The position numbers were made by a program, and so were the translations under genes. Positions 1,751 to 18,915 of a DNA stretch of 64,000 nt are shown in pieces. Source of the DNA: Bacteroidales bacterium. GTDB taxonomy: Bacteria; Bacteroidota; Bacteroidia; Bacteroidales; UBA932. Under the pieces are notes generated by a model. That model saw nothing but the letters and a program-made list of their open reading frames with translations. It was not told the DNA's origin and did not search any database. Location: positions 1-64,000 of the forward strand of contig JAFRPW010000035.1 in the NCBI GenBank assembly GCA_017428945.1, given 5' to 3'. Each line of letters opens with the position of its first letter. The first letter of the stretch is position 1.

Positions 1751-4700
1751 ATGGTTAGAAAAGCATTCGTTGCCATTCTGGCAGCATTAGTCTCACTCAG
1801 CGCGCTCGCGCAGACGCACAAGGTAGACGTCGTCCTCAAGGACGCATCAAACGGAGAGCCCATAGGCTTTGCCACGGTATCACTCACGCAGGAAAAGGGC
1901 ACTCCCAAGTATGCCCTTACTGACGGTGAAGGCAAGGCCACCCTGGAAAAGGTCCACAACGGAAAATATACCTTCAAGGCAGAGATCATGGGTTATGTGA
2001 CGGTGGAAAAGACCGTCACCGTGGAAGGTCACACCAACCTTGGAGAAATCAAGATGGAACTTGACTCCAAGGTGCTTGACGCCGCATCCGTATCGGCAGT
2101 GGGCAACCCAATCATCATCAAGAAAGATACGGTGGAGTATAATGCATCGTCCTTCAAGATAAGCGAGGACAACATGCTGGTAGACCTCCTGAAGAAGCTT
2201 CCGGGCATAGAAGTGGAGTCGGACGGTACCATCACCAGTAACGGCGAGACCATCTCCAAGATTACCATTGCCGGCAAGACCTTCTTCCTGGACGATCCCC
2301 AGCTGGCCTCCCAGAACATTCCCGCCAAGCTCATCGAGAAGGTGAAGGTGGTGAAAAAGAAGAGTGAACAGGCGGAATTCACCGGCATTGACGACGGCGA
2401 GGAAGAGACCGTAATAGACCTCACCGTCCAGCGCGGTATGATGAACGGCCTGTTCGGGAACGTCATGGGCGGCGCCGGTCACGATGTCCCCTCAACGGGC
2501 ACCGGAGACTTCCGCTGGCAGAGTTCCCTCATGGGCGGAAAGTTCACGGAGAAAACCCAGATCAGCGTCATCGCCAACGCCAACAATACCAATAACCGCG
2601 GCTTCAACGACTTCACTTCCAGCATGATGGGAGGTATGATGGGCGGCGGCGGCATGATGGGCCGTGGCGGCGGAATGGGCGGCTGGGGCGGCTCCAACGG
2701 CATTACCACCTCATGGATGGGCGGCATTAACGGCAACTGGGATCTTCTTGGGGACAAGATGCAGCTTGGCGGCAACTACCTCTACAACGGCTCCAGGACC
2801 GACGTCGAAGAATCTTCCTACAAGGAGACCTACCGCGACGACGGATCGGCCCTCATATCCGACTCCGACGGCATGAGCACCCGTTTCACCAACGGCCACC
2901 GCTTTGGCATGCGCCTGGAGCACAAGTTCTCAGAGAACACGTCCATCCTGTTCCAGCCGCAGTTCAACTTCGGCAGCGGCAACTACCTGCAGCAGAGCGG
3001 CTTCGACACCGACACCCGCGCTGCGGACGGCACCAGGACCAATACCAACGACGGTTTCACCCACGGCAGCGGCGCCAACAATAACTGGAGCACCAGGGGT
3101 TTCCTCCTCCTGCGCCAGCGCCTGGGAATTCCCGGCCGTACGATATCGGCAAACGTGGACTGGAATATCTCACGCAACAAGATGACGGGCTACAACCAGT
3201 CACTCACCAATTCAGTTGCCGGTGCAGACTACGTTAACCAGTACATCGACCAGAAGTCCAACAGCGAAAGCGCCGGAACCAGGATCGTCTACACTGAGCC
3301 TCTGGGCAACTACTTCTATCTGGAAGGCAGCTACAATTTCCGCTTCTCACAGAGCACCTCGCTCAAGGATACATATGACAGCGGAGTATACGACTGGACA
3401 GGCATTGGCTATGACCGCAACCTCCACAGGATAGTGGATGCCGCCGGGGAGCCGCTTGCGATCCTTCCTTTTGATTTCACCAACTATAACAGCGGTACAA
3501 AGAACGACACCTACTCCAACAGCATCCTCAATATAAACCGCAACCATAACATGGGTCTTGCGTTCATGTACCAGAAGGAGCAGGCCCGTGCCCAGATAGG
3601 TATTTCCGCAATTCCTACCAGCACAACCAACCTTACCAACGGCAAGGGTTATGAGAGCAATGTCTGGAACTTCTCCCCGCGTGCAATGGTGTTCTACGAC
3701 TTCAACGAGAACTCCAATATCCGCCTGTTCTACTTCGGCCGCAGCGCACAGCCTTCAACCTCACAGCTGATGCCTGTCATGGACAACTCCAATCCACTGT
3801 CCATGAGCCTTGGTAACCCTTACCTGGAGCCGTATTTCAACCATAATCTCCGCTCCGAGTGGGAGTTCTCCAACAAGCAGACCTTCTTCACCGCACGCGT
3901 GAACGTGCAGGGCGGAATGGTCCAGAACCCCATCACCAACGCCACCTGGTACGACAATAACGGCCGTCAGTATTCTTTCCCCGTGAACGGCCACAATACC
4001 TACAACGGAAGTGTCCGTGTCATGATAAACGCCCCCATCGCAAAGAGCGGGTTCTCCATTTCCAACATGGCAAACGCTTCATATTCCAAGAGCGGCAGCT
4101 TTGTGGGGTCAACAGACAAGAAGTTGGACATGAGCGGCTACTTCAACGCAGCTGGGGAGTTTGACTATGAGGCCTTCCACAAGCATTACTTTGAAGACAG
4201 CTCCACGGCCTGGGACGCCGATTTCCTTGACAACAGCACCCGCAACCTCAGCCTCATGGAGCGCATCCGCCTCACCTACAGGGACGACCACATTGAAATA
4301 ATAGGTAGCGCCCGTACCCGGGTGAGCAAGCCCTGGTACACCATTCAGGAAGATGTCGCCGCCACCTGGAACAACCAGGCATCTGGTTCCTTCAAGTGGA
4401 CTCCCGGCACCAGCGGTTTCGAAATCTCTACCGAGGCCCGCTACAACTGGTACAACGGCTACACCACGCCTCAGGACCCTCAGTTCATATGGGACGCCTC
4501 CATGTCCATGCCAATCTTCAAGCGCCAGGCCACAATTTCTCTCAAGGCATATGACATTCTGGAGCAGGGCCGTAACCTCAGGGTCAATGTGACGGACAAC
4601 TACTATCAGGAAACCCGCAACAACACTCTGGGCCGATATGTAATCCTCTCCTTCACCTGGAGGTTCGGCAACTTTGGCGGCAACCGCGACGGAATGCGCG

Positions 4701-4756
4701 GCGGTCCCGGCGGTTTCCGCGGCGGTCCAGGCATGGGCGGCAGAAGACCTTTCTAG
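1751..4756 (+). CDS. Outer-membrane beta-barrel protein with carboxypeptidase-like N-terminal domain (TonB-receptor-like)
   Basis: The 1001-residue protein starts with a signal peptide (cleavage after SALAQ). A carboxypeptidase-regulatory-like fold follows at about 25-105. A plug-like region at about 115-235 contains NMLVDLLKKLPGIEV, ITIAGKTFFLDD and LIEKVKVVKKK. The rest is a large aromatic-rich beta-barrel of the OMP_b-brl_3 type found in SusC-like receptors. It sits in the outer membrane and probably takes up an unidentified ligand. Two Met/Gly-rich stretches stand out, one near residues 296-318 and one at the extreme C-terminus. No susD-like partner is adjacent. Its stop lies 17 bases from the convergent pseudouridine synthase gene. 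Confidence 0.85.
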   Translation: MVRKAFVAILAALVSLSALAQTHKVDVVLKDASNGEPIGFATVSLTQEKGTPKYALTDGEGKATLEKVHNGKYTFKAEIMGYVTVEKTVTVEGHTNLGEIKMELDSKVLDAASVSAVGNPIIIKKDTVEYNASSFKISEDNMLVDLLKKLPGIEVESDGTITSNGETISKITIAGKTFFLDDPQLASQNIPAKLIEKVKVVKKKSEQAEFTGIDDGEEETVIDLTVQRGMMNGLFGNVMGGAGHDVPSTGTGDFRWQSSLMGGKFTEKTQISVIANANNTNNRGFNDFTSSMMGGMMGGGGMMGRGGGMGGWGGSNGITTSWMGGINGNWDLLGDKMQLGGNYLYNGSRTDVEESSYKETYRDDGSALISDSDGMSTRFTNGHRFGMRLEHKFSENTSILFQPQFNFGSGNYLQQSGFDTDTRAADGTRTNTNDGFTHGSGANNNWSTRGFLLLRQRLGIPGRTISANVDWNISRNKMTGYNQSLTNSVAGADYVNQYIDQKSNSESAGTRIVYTEPLGNYFYLEGSYNFRFSQSTSLKDTYDSGVYDWTGIGYDRNLHRIVDAAGEPLAILPFDFTNYNSGTKNDTYSNSILNINRNHNMGLAFMYQKEQARAQIGISAIPTSTTNLTNGKGYESNVWNFSPRAMVFYDFNENSNIRLFYFGRSAQPSTSQLMPVMDNSNPLSMSLGNPYLEPYFNHNLRSEWEFSNKQTFFTARVNVQGGMVQNPITNATWYDNNGRQYSFPVNGHNTYNGSVRVMINAPIAKSGFSISNMANASYSKSGSFVGSTDKKLDMSGYFNAAGEFDYEAFHKHYFEDSSTAWDADFLDNSTRNLSLMERIRLTYRDDHIEIIGSARTRVSKPWYTIQEDVAATWNNQASGSFKWTPGTSGFEISTEARYNWYNGYTTPQDPQFIWDASMSMPIFKRQATISLKAYDILEQGRNLRVNVTDNYYQETRNNTLGRYVILSFTWRFGNFGGNRDGMRGGPGGFRGGPGMGGRRPF

Positions 4757-4773
4757 TTTTGGTGGATAGGTGG

Positions 4774-5787
4774 CTACATTGATGCGGTGTAGCTGCGCCA
4801 TTTTTCGATGAGGGCGGTCATGTCCTCCGGGAGGGGTACTTCGAAGAACAGCCTTTCACCGGTGCGTGGATGGGTGAAGCCCAGCGTTCTGGCATGGAGA
4901 GCCTGGCGGGGGCATAGCTTGAAGCAGTTCTGGATGAACTGTTTGTACTTGGTGTATATGGTTCCCTGGCGTATTTCAGAGCCGCCGTAGCGCTCGTCGT
5001 TAAAAAGGGGATGACCTATTGAGCTCATGTGAACGCGTATCTGGTGGGTGCGGCCAGTTTCCAGGCGGCATTCCACCACTGTAATGAAGCCGTAGCGTTC
5101 AAGTACCTTCCAGTGAGTGACGGCCCACTTTCCCTTCTCGGGGTCATCGTACACTCGGAAACGGAGACGGTCGTTGGGGTCACGGCCGATTGTGCCCTCA
5201 ATAGTTCCTTCGTCCTCCTGGATGTTGCCCCAGACAACGGCTGTGTATATCCGGTCTATGGAATGGACAAAGAACTGATCGGCAAGATTCAGCTGTGCCG
5301 GAGGATTCTTTGCAACCACCAGAAGGCCGCTGGTGTCTTTGTCTATGCGGTGAACAAGAACGCCCATGCGCTCGTCGTCAGCATCCGGCCCCTGGCTTAT
5401 TCCAAGATGGAATGCCAGTGCATTCACAAGAGTGCCGTTGTAGTTACCGTGGCCGGGATGCACCACCATCCCGGCGGGCTTGTTGATGACCATGAGGTCG
5501 TCGTCCTCGTAAACTATGTCAAGGGGGATGTCTTCCGGGAGAATCTCAAGTCCGCGGCGCTCATAGGGCATCACGAACTTGATTACGTCCTGCGGGCGCA
5601 CTATGTAATTTGCCTTGGCGGGGACATCGTTGACCAGCACGTAACCGGCCTCTATGGCCTTCTGGACGCGGCTGCGGGAGGTGTCTTCCTGATGCGTGGC
5701 AATGAACTTGTCTATGCGCACCGGCTCCTGGCCGCGGTCTGCCACCAGACGGAAATGCTCGTACAGGATGTCTTCTTCGTCGGTCAT
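4774..5787 (-). CDS. RluA/RluD-family 23S rRNA pseudouridine synthase
   Basis: This 337-residue RNA-modifying enzyme converts uridine to pseudouridine. An N-terminal S4 RNA-binding domain (SRSRVQKAIEAGYVLVN, about residues 35-80) precedes the catalytic domain. That domain carries the family signature GVLVHRIDKDTSGLLVVAKN with the catalytic Asp, and later RTHQIRVHM. The context is typical of RluD, but the exact rRNA site cannot be read from sequence. Its ATG overlaps the TAA of the PASTA gene by one base (TAATG), so the two are translationally coupled. Confidence 0.92.
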   Translation of the reverse strand: MTDEEDILYEHFRLVADRGQEPVRIDKFIATHQEDTSRSRVQKAIEAGYVLVNDVPAKANYIVRPQDVIKFVMPYERRGLEILPEDIPLDIVYEDDDLMVINKPAGMVVHPGHGNYNGTLVNALAFHLGISQGPDADDERMGVLVHRIDKDTSGLLVVAKNPPAQLNLADQFFVHSIDRIYTAVVWGNIQEDEGTIEGTIGRDPNDRLRFRVYDDPEKGKWAVTHWKVLERYGFITVVECRLETGRTHQIRVHMSSIGHPLFNDERYGGSEIRQGTIYTKYKQFIQNCFKLCPRQALHARTLGFTHPRTGERLFFEVPLPEDMTALIEKWRSYTASM

Positions 5788-17324: not shown

Positions 17325-17331
17325 AAACAGT

Positions 17332-17416
17332 TTGTCCACGGAAATGCCGTGTTTTGGTGGATAAGTTGCCATTTTTGCCAGTTTGTCCACGGAAATGCCG
17401 GGTTTTGGTGGATAAG
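17332..17416. repeat. Two tandem palindromic repeats type A2
   Basis: Two units (17332-17365 and 17383-17416) share the outer arms TTGTCCAC and GTGGATAAG around a GGAAATGCCG-TTTT centre; they differ by about one base. The same order of A1 hairpin then two A2 units recurs at 22885-23003. The second unit ends 11 bases before the tadA -7 box. Confidence 0.85.
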
Positions 17417-17427
17417 TGAGTTATTAC

Positions 17428-17884: not shown

Positions 17885-18634
17885 TCAGCGCCAGGTGTGG
17901 CCTATATCCCAGTGGATTGCATACTGGAAGACGGTTTTCTCCCTGGGAAGGTCAAATTCTTCCAGAATAAGTTCCTTTGCCTGAGGGTATTCCTCCAGCC
18001 AGTGGCCCGCTGTCACTATGTAACTGTCCGTATCCATGCTGTAGAAAACACGTCCTCTTGGCTTATTCTCGTAGGGACCGATGAAAGGACCGCTGCCATC
18101 TCCGTGAAATTTCTGCCTGTTGTATTCTTTGCGCCAGACATCTTCATGAAGCTCAGAGCAGGTGATACGGCCATCCGAAGCATTTGCCCTTGTGTAATCC
18201 CTCACCGGATGGGAAACAATGCCAAAGAGCTCGTTCCATGAAGGGTTATACCAGAATATTCCCACTTTGGGATCATCACCGTGGCCGCGGTTTGCCTCCA
18301 TCTGCTTAAGCATGGACAAATAGTCATCCTCTGAAACTTTTCTGAGTCTGGAAGGCGGCTCCTCAAAAGAAGGCAGGAGCTCGTTCCCTATACTGACAAC
18401 TGCTATGTAATCCTCGTCCTCCTCATAATAATACACTATTATGCCGTTTCCGTTAAAGCGGCGCTCCCAATACTCAGGCACTGAATCATTGAAGAGAACC
18501 GGGGTGCCGATTCCCTCCAGCGGATGCTCCTTGATATCCAGGAGGATTGCCTTCACCTGGGCAGCATACCCCGTGTTTTTCCCCTTCAGCGACTGATACT
18601 GGTACTGGGCTTTGGGGCTGAAATACAGTTTCAT
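17885..18634 (-). CDS. YoeB-fold domain lacking catalytic residues, fused to a domain of unknown function
   Basis: The 249-residue protein has two parts. Residues 1-84 align without gaps to E. coli YoeB, including PLEGIGTP at the EGKGKP position and EYWERR at FWSRR. Yet the residues YoeB uses for mRNA cleavage are changed: Glu46 to Val, Arg65 to Ile, His83 to Gly and Tyr84 to Asn. After a charged linker (about 88-122) comes a domain of about 125 residues starting VGIFWYNPSWNELFGIV, with KPRGRVFYSMDTDSYIVTAG and ending TVFQYAIHWDIGHTWR. This looks like an uncharacterised widespread family (recalled, unchecked). The ATG overlaps the YefM stop by 4 bases, so the pair is one operon. I infer a derived toxin-antitoxin module whose activity moved to the new domain. 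Confidence 0.8.
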   Translation of the reverse strand: MKLYFSPKAQYQYQSLKGKNTGYAAQVKAILLDIKEHPLEGIGTPVLFNDSVPEYWERRFNGNGIIVYYYEEDEDYIAVVSIGNELLPSFEEPPSRLRKVSEDDYLSMLKQMEANRGHGDDPKVGIFWYNPSWNELFGIVSHPVRDYTRANASDGRITCSELHEDVWRKEYNRQKFHGDGSGPFIGPYENKPRGRVFYSMDTDSYIVTAGHWLEEYPQAKELILEEFDLPREKTVFQYAIHWDIGHTWR

Positions 18635-18885
18635 AGGGCATCGATGTCTGTTATCTCTATAAGCTGTCCTGCACGCATCTGGTTTATGGATTCCGTAAGA
18701 TCCCTTACAGCCTTGGTGTTATTCAGAAACTCCAGACGACGTTGCATGGCGTTGTAGTCCTTTAGCGGGATCAGCACCGCTCCGTTGTCCCCCTTGGTTA
18801 TGATCAAGGGCTCCTCCGTGAGGAGAACGTTGTCATAAAACTGCTTGATGCCGGCCCTGAAGGCGGAAATGGTTGTCACCTGCAT
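18631..18885 (-). CDS. YefM/Phd-family antitoxin
   Basis: The 84-residue protein matches the YefM type. The N-terminal DNA-binding half has VTTISAFRAGIKQFYDNVL and the typical PLIITKGDNGAVLIPLKDYN. The C-terminal, normally toxin-wrapping half has LNNTKAVRDLTESINQM. It is the first gene of a two-gene operon with the YoeB-derived fusion (ATGA overlap). YefM proteins repress their own operon as a complex with YoeB; an operator-like site with correct core spacing lies 13-30 bases upstream of the start. Confidence 0.92.
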   Translation of the reverse strand: MQVTTISAFRAGIKQFYDNVLLTEEPLIITKGDNGAVLIPLKDYNAMQRRLEFLNNTKAVRDLTESINQMRAGQLIEITDIDAL

Positions 18886-18897
18886 AATACAATATTT

Positions 18898-18915
18898 TGT
18901 ACAAATATACGTACA
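18898..18915. promoter_or_regulatory. YefM-type operator with overlapping promoter
   Basis: TGTACA (18898-18903) and CGTACA (18910-18915) are offset by exactly 12 bases. E. coli YefM-YoeB recognises paired TGTACA cores with 12-bp centre-to-centre spacing. The minus-strand -7 box TATATTTG (plus-strand CAAATATA, 18902-18909) lies between and under the cores, so occupancy would block transcription. Confidence 0.65.

What the first reader, a model, noticed from the sequence alone, without database searches (positions are those of the whole stretch)
17885..18634. YoeB-fold toxin domain that has lost all catalytic residues and gained a new C-terminal domain
Residues 1-84 align gap-free with E. coli YoeB, yet Glu46, Arg65, His83 and Tyr84 are Val, Ile, Gly and Asn. 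A further domain of about 125 residues (from VGIFWYNPSWNELFGIV) is attached. A decaying toxin would be expected to gain stops or frameshifts; instead the frame, the coupling to YefM and the operator are intact. I infer selection for a repurposed module in which the YoeB fold is a YefM-binding or DNA-binding adaptor and the new domain is the effector.
Basis: partly seen in the sequence, partly recalled or inferred. Interest (0 to 1): 0.82.

Follow-up and report, generated by a model that had tools for sequence, protein, structure and literature searches.

The report
Dead toxin domain carrying conserved payload
A bacterial toxin-antitoxin pair whose toxin half has lost its cutting residues is kept across many Bacteroidales, apparently as a docking and control part for a conserved second domain that some phages also carry, so a toxin system seems to have been reused as a switch for something else.

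Summary
Residues 1-84 are YoeB by Pfam, PDB profile and predicted fold; Glu46, Arg65 and the His-Tyr tail are gone; a roughly 145-residue C-terminal domain follows.

It is not one odd gene: I found 24 distinct intact fusions, 22 of them ATGA-coupled to a yefM. All 22 YefM-partnered loci tested for it carry two TGTACA-like sites 12 bp apart, the classic yefM-yoeB operator. Arg65 and His-Tyr are absent in 24 of 24 fusions; Glu46 survives in four. All 42 distinct single-domain YoeBs fetched from the same taxonomic family keep Arg65. One fusion (L045) seems to have swapped YefM's DNA-binding half yet kept its C-terminal tail, so antitoxin docking looks selected.

The C-terminal domain is the most conserved part, matches no described family that I searched, and is not new: it occurs without YoeB in host genomes (13 of 24 loci tested near capsule-sugar genes) and in rumen phage contigs. 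None of 32 YoeB-less copies has a YefM within 2 kb, which argues against a classic YefM-neutralised killer.

Verdict: repurposed adaptor supported; payload function unknown, perhaps phage- or capsule-linked.

The parts
17885..18634 (-). Fusion protein P0001 (249 aa + stop): degenerate YoeB domain + linker + conserved C-terminal domain
   Evidence: one of 24 distinct intact fusions
18383..18634 (-). Residues 1-84: YoeB/BECR-fold domain without Glu46, Arg65 or a His-Tyr tail
18323..18382 (-). Residues 85-104: variable linker (27% mean pairwise identity)
   Evidence: pLDDT under 50 at 86-100
17888..18322 (-). Residues 105-249: conserved C-terminal domain (70% mean pairwise identity among fusions); conserved core from P122 (VGIFWY ... 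H163/W167 ... Y188, PRG ... G210/W212 ... H241/W242, G245, W248)
   Evidence: no convincing match in Pfam, NCBIfam, PHROGs, PADLOC or PDB sequences
18631..18885 (-). YefM/Phd-type antitoxin P0002 (84 aa + stop), 4-nt ATGA overlap with the fusion; tail ends EITDIDAL
18898..18915 (-). Paired palindromic operator: TGTACG (18915-18910) and TGTACA (18903-18898), 12 bp apart
   Evidence: spacing and core as described for yefM-yoeB in PMC7730913 (passages)

Best explanation
This is a yefM-yoeB toxin-antitoxin operon whose toxin domain has lost the YoeB RNase residues and now most likely serves as the antitoxin-docking part for a fused payload domain. Shown by sequence: the YoeB family and fold, the loss of Arg65 and His-Tyr in every fusion found, the YefM partner, the ATGA coupling, the paired TGTACA operator and the strong conservation of the payload. 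Inferred: YefM binds the dead YoeB domain through its C-terminal tail; the complex sits on the paired operator and represses the operon, as YefM-YoeB does; when YefM is degraded the operon opens and free fusion protein accumulates. The payload is then what acts. Because it lives without YefM in phages and in host chromosomes, often in capsule-sugar clusters, I think it is not a simple killer but a binding or catalytic domain used in phage-host conflict around the capsule. That last step is the least certain.
For: Family and fold. 24 distinct intact fusions; in the N-domain tree the 25 fusion rows (24 distinct proteins, L134 being identical to L039) and three degenerate singles lie on one side of a 99/99 branch, all catalytic YoeBs on the other. 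R65 0 of 24 and His-Tyr 0 of 24 in fusions, against R65 42 of 42, E46 37 of 42 (K in the other 5) and His-Tyr-type tail 40 of 42 distinct single-domain YoeBs fetched. Paired operator 22 of 22, 11 perfect, 0 of 11,000 shuffles perfect, other spacings from 8 to 16 at most 4 of 22; L135, tested apart, has a perfect pair. ATGA overlap with yefM in 22 of 24; L135 has yefM without overlap, L045 a different antitoxin ORF. L045: 57-aa ORF with a ribbon-helix-helix-like front (weak ParG match, E 0.036; a relative in L202 precedes an ORF that looks RelE-like by eye) joined to the tail EFIEVDIDNL. Conservation: payload 70%, YefM 53%, dead YoeB 45%, linker 27%. Neighbours of the module differ between most loci, near relatives apart.
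Against: No binding, DNA-binding or growth data exist. The C-domain was modelled only within the whole protein (ten-residue block means about 54-93 over residues 101-240) and could not be modelled alone. dS is saturated in most pairs, so dN/dS ratios are rough. Five of 29 loci are broken (L047 stop; L034, L017, L009 frameshifts; L154 recombined). L019/L150 keeps yefM, operator and the dead YoeB domain without the payload, so the dead domain may have a use of its own. The ribbon-helix-helix reading of L045 rests on a weak match and one locus. The YefM-dead YoeB distance correlation (0.79) is no higher than YefM-payload (0.82), so it shows co-inheritance only.
Confidence: 0.55

Rival explanations
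1. The payload is a true toxin: the C-terminal domain kills or arrests the cell, and YefM neutralises it by holding the dead YoeB domain.
For: Operon layout is that of a type II TA pair. A few YoeB-less payload copies sit beside other TA or abortive-infection genes: after a PIN-domain gene in L154, upstream of an ORF pair whose second member is ParE-like in L095, after an Abi_alpha gene in L087.
Against: 0 of 32 YoeB-less payload loci has a YefM-like ORF within 2 kb; four such proteins (L049, L052-L054) branch inside the fusion clade, so the payload seems to have outlived the loss of YefM. Another, unrecognised antitoxin is not excluded.
Confidence: 0.15
2. The YoeB-like domain is still toxic but by another route, as ParE uses the same fold without RNase residues to inhibit gyrase.
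For: Loss of RNase residues does not mean loss of toxicity: PMC11980606 (passages) states that ParE shares the BECR fold, lacks the RNase residues and inhibits gyrase. L019/L150 keeps the dead domain with YefM and no payload. Weak Pfam ParE match, E 0.023.
Against: The N-domain is less conserved than the payload (45% against 70%); best matches in sequence and fold are YoeB, not ParE.
Confidence: 0.12
3. The fusion is an anti-addiction or YefM-sequestering device aimed at catalytic yefM-yoeB modules.
For: A dead toxin that binds YefM could titrate it; YoeB-like single domains are common in the family.
Against: 7 of 9 searched genomes with an intact fusion show no second YoeB-domain match at E <= 1e-6 (G293 and G051 do), and the antitoxins of the two groups differ in sequence and upstream repeats.
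Confidence: 0.06
4. A decaying TA module whose frame happens to be intact.
For: Five of 29 loci are broken, and either half is lost in some lineages.
Against: 24 distinct intact fusions down to about 48% identity to the window protein; pN far below pS in both domains; operator and coupling kept.
Confidence: 0.05

Closest known systems
yefM-yoeB / axe-txe type II toxin-antitoxin modules (PF06769 + PF02604)
   Same: Antitoxin-toxin order, YoeB fold, YefM family, two TGTACA cores 12 bp apart (PMC7730913 passages)
   Different: Arg65 and His-Tyr lost in all 24 fusions, Glu46 in 20; a 145-residue unclassified domain is attached
PtuZ of ptuXYZ (PMC11980606, passages)
   Same: Two-domain protein with a YoeB-related BECR domain and one toxin-type domain lacking its catalytic residues
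   Different: There the PIN-like half lacks the residues and the YoeB-like half is taken as the RNase, in a three-gene operon with an ATPase; here the YoeB half is dead and the partner is YefM
[quoted passage not shown]
   Same: YoeB domain in a multidomain protein; RHH and YefM fronts both occur
   Different: Those fuse antitoxin to toxin; here the antitoxin is a separate protein and the extra domain is not an antitoxin domain
ParE gyrase-inhibitor toxins
   Same: BECR fold without RNase residues
   Different: Sequence and fold matches rank YoeB first; ParE is only a sub-threshold match

Membership tests
YoeB toxin family (PF06769) | Sequence above the Pfam gathering score | tested here: met
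   32.3 bits against a cut-off of 27
YoeB toxin family (PF06769) | YoeB/BECR fold | tested here: met
Txe/YoeB addiction toxin (NCBIfam TIGR02116 equivalog) | Score above the curated equivalog cut-off | tested here: not met
   25 bits against a cut-off of 51.8
YoeB ribosome-dependent mRNase | Glu46, Arg65, C-terminal His (Tyr84 assists) (residues named in PMC7256200 passages) | tested here: not met
   V46, I65, no His-Tyr
YoeB ribosome-dependent mRNase | mRNA cleavage at the ribosomal A site | not testable with these tools
   Needs an assay
yefM-yoeB operon | Phd/YefM antitoxin directly upstream, overlapping | tested here: met
   PF02604 1.7e-13; 4-nt overlap
yefM-yoeB operon | Two TGTACA palindrome cores 12 bp apart in the promoter region | tested here: met
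   One mismatch in the window copy; 22 of 22 YefM-partnered loci with at most 2. Overlap with a promoter was not tested
Type II toxin-antitoxin system | Toxic protein neutralised by the antitoxin protein | not testable with these tools
   No growth or binding data
ParE gyrase inhibitors (PF05016) | Pfam gathering score | tested here: not met
   15.7 bits against 23
Any described family, for the C-terminal domain | Match to a described sequence family | tested here: not met
   Pfam and NCBIfam: 21 members scanned, only single-member matches at E 0.014 or weaker; PHROGs best E 0.063; PADLOC none; PDB sequences none up to E 10
Any described fold, for the C-terminal domain | Match to a known fold | tested here: inconclusive
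   Only the whole-protein model could be searched; a fifth or more of the rows span only residues 1-93

The most novel reading that the evidence does not exclude
A toxin-antitoxin chassis has been turned into a regulated carrier: the dead YoeB domain and its antitoxin form a plug-in control unit (tail docks, DNA-binding half exchangeable), and the payload is a domain shared by rumen phages, two of whose eight distinct copies bear an N-terminal tag that looks like a capsid-targeting signal and may be packaged and injected, and by host capsule-sugar clusters. The host fusion would then be a stored, antitoxin-gated counterpart of a phage-delivered protein, used in the contest over capsule and infection.
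Probability: 0.15. Interest if true: 0.85.

Novelty: new variant of a known kind. Interest (0 to 1): 0.6.

Why it matters
Toxin domains are usually annotated by fold and assumed to be active. Here a whole clade keeps the fold, the antitoxin and the operator while losing the enzyme's residues, which makes 'is toxicity needed to keep a TA module?' directly testable. The apparent swap in L045 (new DNA-binding half, same tail) suggests that the contact between antitoxin tail and pseudotoxin is the part under selection. The payload is an unclassified, strongly conserved domain shared with phages and often found in capsule clusters, hence a lead to an unknown step in phage-Bacteroidales conflict.

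Tried and rejected
Decay: rejected for the family by 24 distinct intact fusions and the conserved operator and coupling, though 5 broken members exist. Plasmid or known-phage module: tblastn of the whole protein against plasmids gave only weak YoeB-domain hits (8 records, E 0.3-1) and the C-domain against phage records one chance-level hit (E 4); two phage proteins against phage records and one lone host copy against plasmids gave none. Known fold for the C-domain: the Foldseek and VIA rows shown are YoeB/RelE/ParE-type chains on the N-terminal half, and BFVD gave nothing at E <= 0.001; the C-domain alone could not be modelled, so a known fold is not excluded. Internal duplication in the C-domain, suspected by eye: no signal in a half-against-half profile comparison. 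C-domain beyond the order: a phylum draw found it in 1 of 296 genomes, the window's own; an order draw in 11 of 393, own included; neither excludes rarer copies. Capsule linkage of lone copies: 9 of 18 loci (four with the N-helix form) have a nucleotide-sugar or capsule marker within 4 kb, against 1 of 19 fusion loci, L041; but the markers were taken partly from those same loci, and several fusion loci have under 4 kb of flank. On 6 further loci 4 matched strongly, one at 22% identity only and one not at all. Within the largest lone-copy clade that makes 12 of 15 loci tested. Mirror-tree test of YefM against the two domains: no contrast. My label for the two lone-copy types failed (all rows fell into 'stdB'); I speak of the clades drawn there. 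Literature: searches listed no paper on this fusion in the held open-access library. Of papers I saw the outline, abstract and passages of PMC11980606, and passages only of PMC7256200, PMC7730913 and PMC3012670; the rest are listings. Overlap of the operator with Bacteroidetes promoter elements is recalled, not tested.

Full report

The family. A family search (299 genomes, 49 with any match) and one scan of the genome collection (20 loci) gave 24 full-length ORFs, 23 distinct; a second family search added one more distinct intact fusion, L135, so 24 in all. By record title or by kinship to the window's genome they are Bacteroidales; two titles say only Bacteroidia (L038, L046). Several titles name ruminant stomach samples. 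Arg65 and His-Tyr are absent in 24 of 24; Glu46 is kept in 4 (L035, L036, L037, L045). Of 42 distinct single-domain YoeBs fetched from the same family, 42 have Arg65, 37 Glu46 (the other 5 Lys) and 40 a His-Tyr-type tail; further N-only places were not fetched. An N-domain tree separates the two groups (99/99; few columns, rough bootstrap) and puts three degenerate singles with the fusions, two of which (L138, L154) are pieces of broken fusions.

Selection. Mean pairwise identity is 45% (N-domain), 27% (linker), 70% (C-domain) and 53% for YefM. In 15 pairs (the near-identical L001/L031 left aside) pN lies far below pS in both domains (N 0.10-0.33 against 0.59-0.94; C 0.05-0.16 against 0.64-0.93); dS is saturated in most pairs, so I do not lean on the ratios. 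Broken members count against a uniform story: L047 (stop), L034, L017 and L009 (frameshifts) and L154 (recombined), 5 of 29; L008 is cut by a contig end.

Control region. All 22 YefM-partnered intact loci tested carry two TGTACA-like cores 12 bp apart with at most 2 mismatches, 11 perfectly; Markov shuffles reach this in 0.6% and never perfectly (11,000 shuffles), and other spacings from 8 to 16 reach at most 4 of 22. L135, tested apart, has a perfect pair. This is the arrangement reported for yefM-yoeB and axe-txe (PMC7730913 passages). The ten printed yefM upstream regions of single-domain YoeBs show GTAC repeats of another kind (by eye). The ATGA overlap with yefM is present in 22 of 24; for L039 and L005 the script's profile score was poor although the yefM ORF had been found.

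A natural swap. Upstream of the L045 fusion there is no YefM body. Instead a 57-aa ORF begins with a ribbon-helix-helix-like stretch (weak ParG match, E 0.036; a relative in L202 precedes an ORF that looks RelE-like by eye) and ends in EFIEVDIDNL, close to the tail of most YefMs of the family, and overlaps the fusion start. I read this as exchange of the DNA-binding half with the tail kept, hence as evidence that the contact of tail and pseudotoxin is under selection. It is one locus.

The C-terminal domain. Across 59 distinct sequences, positions conserved in over 95% include P122, V124, G125, F127, W128, Y129, F137, G138, H163, W167, Y188, P192-R193-G194, G210, W212, F227, L229, H241, W242, G245 and W248. 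No library searched names it. It occurs without YoeB in host genomes, in four proteins with a different N-terminal helix that branch inside the fusion clade (93/90 and 100/99 at the enclosing forks; the tree carries long-branch warnings), and in nine IMG/VR contigs giving eight distinct proteins. None of 32 such loci, some near-identical, has a YefM-like ORF within 2 kb, so far as the stretches held reach. So the domain does not seem to need YefM, which weakens the reading of a YefM-neutralised killer.

Neighbourhoods. Lone host copies often sit among nucleotide-sugar and capsule genes: 9 of 18 loci in the first set and 4 of 6 in a second set (limits under Tried and rejected). Pfam named UDP-glucose dehydrogenases, UDP-GlcNAc 2-epimerase, a polysaccharide biosynthesis protein, a nucleotidyl transferase, GDP-mannose dehydratase and NusG among nine such neighbours; RmlC, RmlD and GalE were named by eye. 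L087 has an Abi_alpha gene about 20 bp upstream; L095 has an ORF pair next door whose second member is ParE-like, and L154 a PIN-domain gene. Fusion modules have different neighbours in most of 19 loci compared with the window; near relatives share some (window, L031, L032 and L033 lie near tadA). In three congeners (L107, L109, L110; of 30 tadA loci read) engB lies beside tadA with no module there, though the genome of L109 holds a broken copy elsewhere (G983).

Mechanism. Shown: family and fold, loss of catalytic residues, coupling, operator, payload conservation. Inferred: YefM docks its tail on the dead domain, the complex represses the operon, YefM loss releases the fusion, and the payload acts. 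What the payload does is unknown; its company (phages, capsule genes, a few TA and abortive-infection neighbours) points to phage-host conflict. Chief rivals: payload as toxin (0.15) and residual ParE-like toxicity of the N-domain (0.12).

Novelty. I found no description of this fusion in the searches listed. The nearest published cases seen are multidomain BECR proteins, among them PtuZ with a PIN-like half that lacks its catalytic residues (PMC11980606, passages). I rate it a new variant of a known kind.

Noticed in passing
L063, L070, L071 (rumen phage contigs): 13 of 72 genes called in six phage loci (all 13 in these three) begin with a tag of the kind MKLRINES / MKLKIPES (I-x-E near residue 7), against 0 of 75 in five other phage loci and 0 of 197 in 13 host loci; the pattern was written after seeing the tags. 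Two C-domain homologues carry it. It resembles a T4-type capsid-targeting sequence (CTS in PMC3012670 passages; cleavage motif recalled).
   Followed up: partly
L071:5413-5841: Next gene after the phage C-domain homologue looks by eye like a distant relative (H--TW ... PRGR); only close relatives found, four viral loci including its own.
   Followed up: partly
L154:1026-1958 and 4409-4795: A fusion gene split by recombination with the 3' end of a PIN-domain (vapC-like) gene: the YoeB half ends in VapC-like residues and the C-domain half follows a PIN gene as an intact ORF.
   Followed up: partly
L019/L150/L102 (G049): Degenerate YoeB without the C-domain, with yefM and a perfect paired operator, directly upstream of a UDP-glucose dehydrogenase-like gene.
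   Followed up: partly
window 17325-17420: Two near-identical direct copies of about 40 bp (cagtttgtccacggaaatgccg-gttttggtggataagt) between the Rne/Rng-like gene and tadA; seen by eye only.
   Followed up: no
L094:5938-6783: C-domain at the N-terminus of a 282-aa protein with a further unidentified C-terminal part (no Pfam match).
   Followed up: no
L064:6996-7733 and L067:3413-4111: Phage contigs with the C-domain also carry a QueC-like gene (7-deazaguanine synthesis; named by eye).
   Followed up: no
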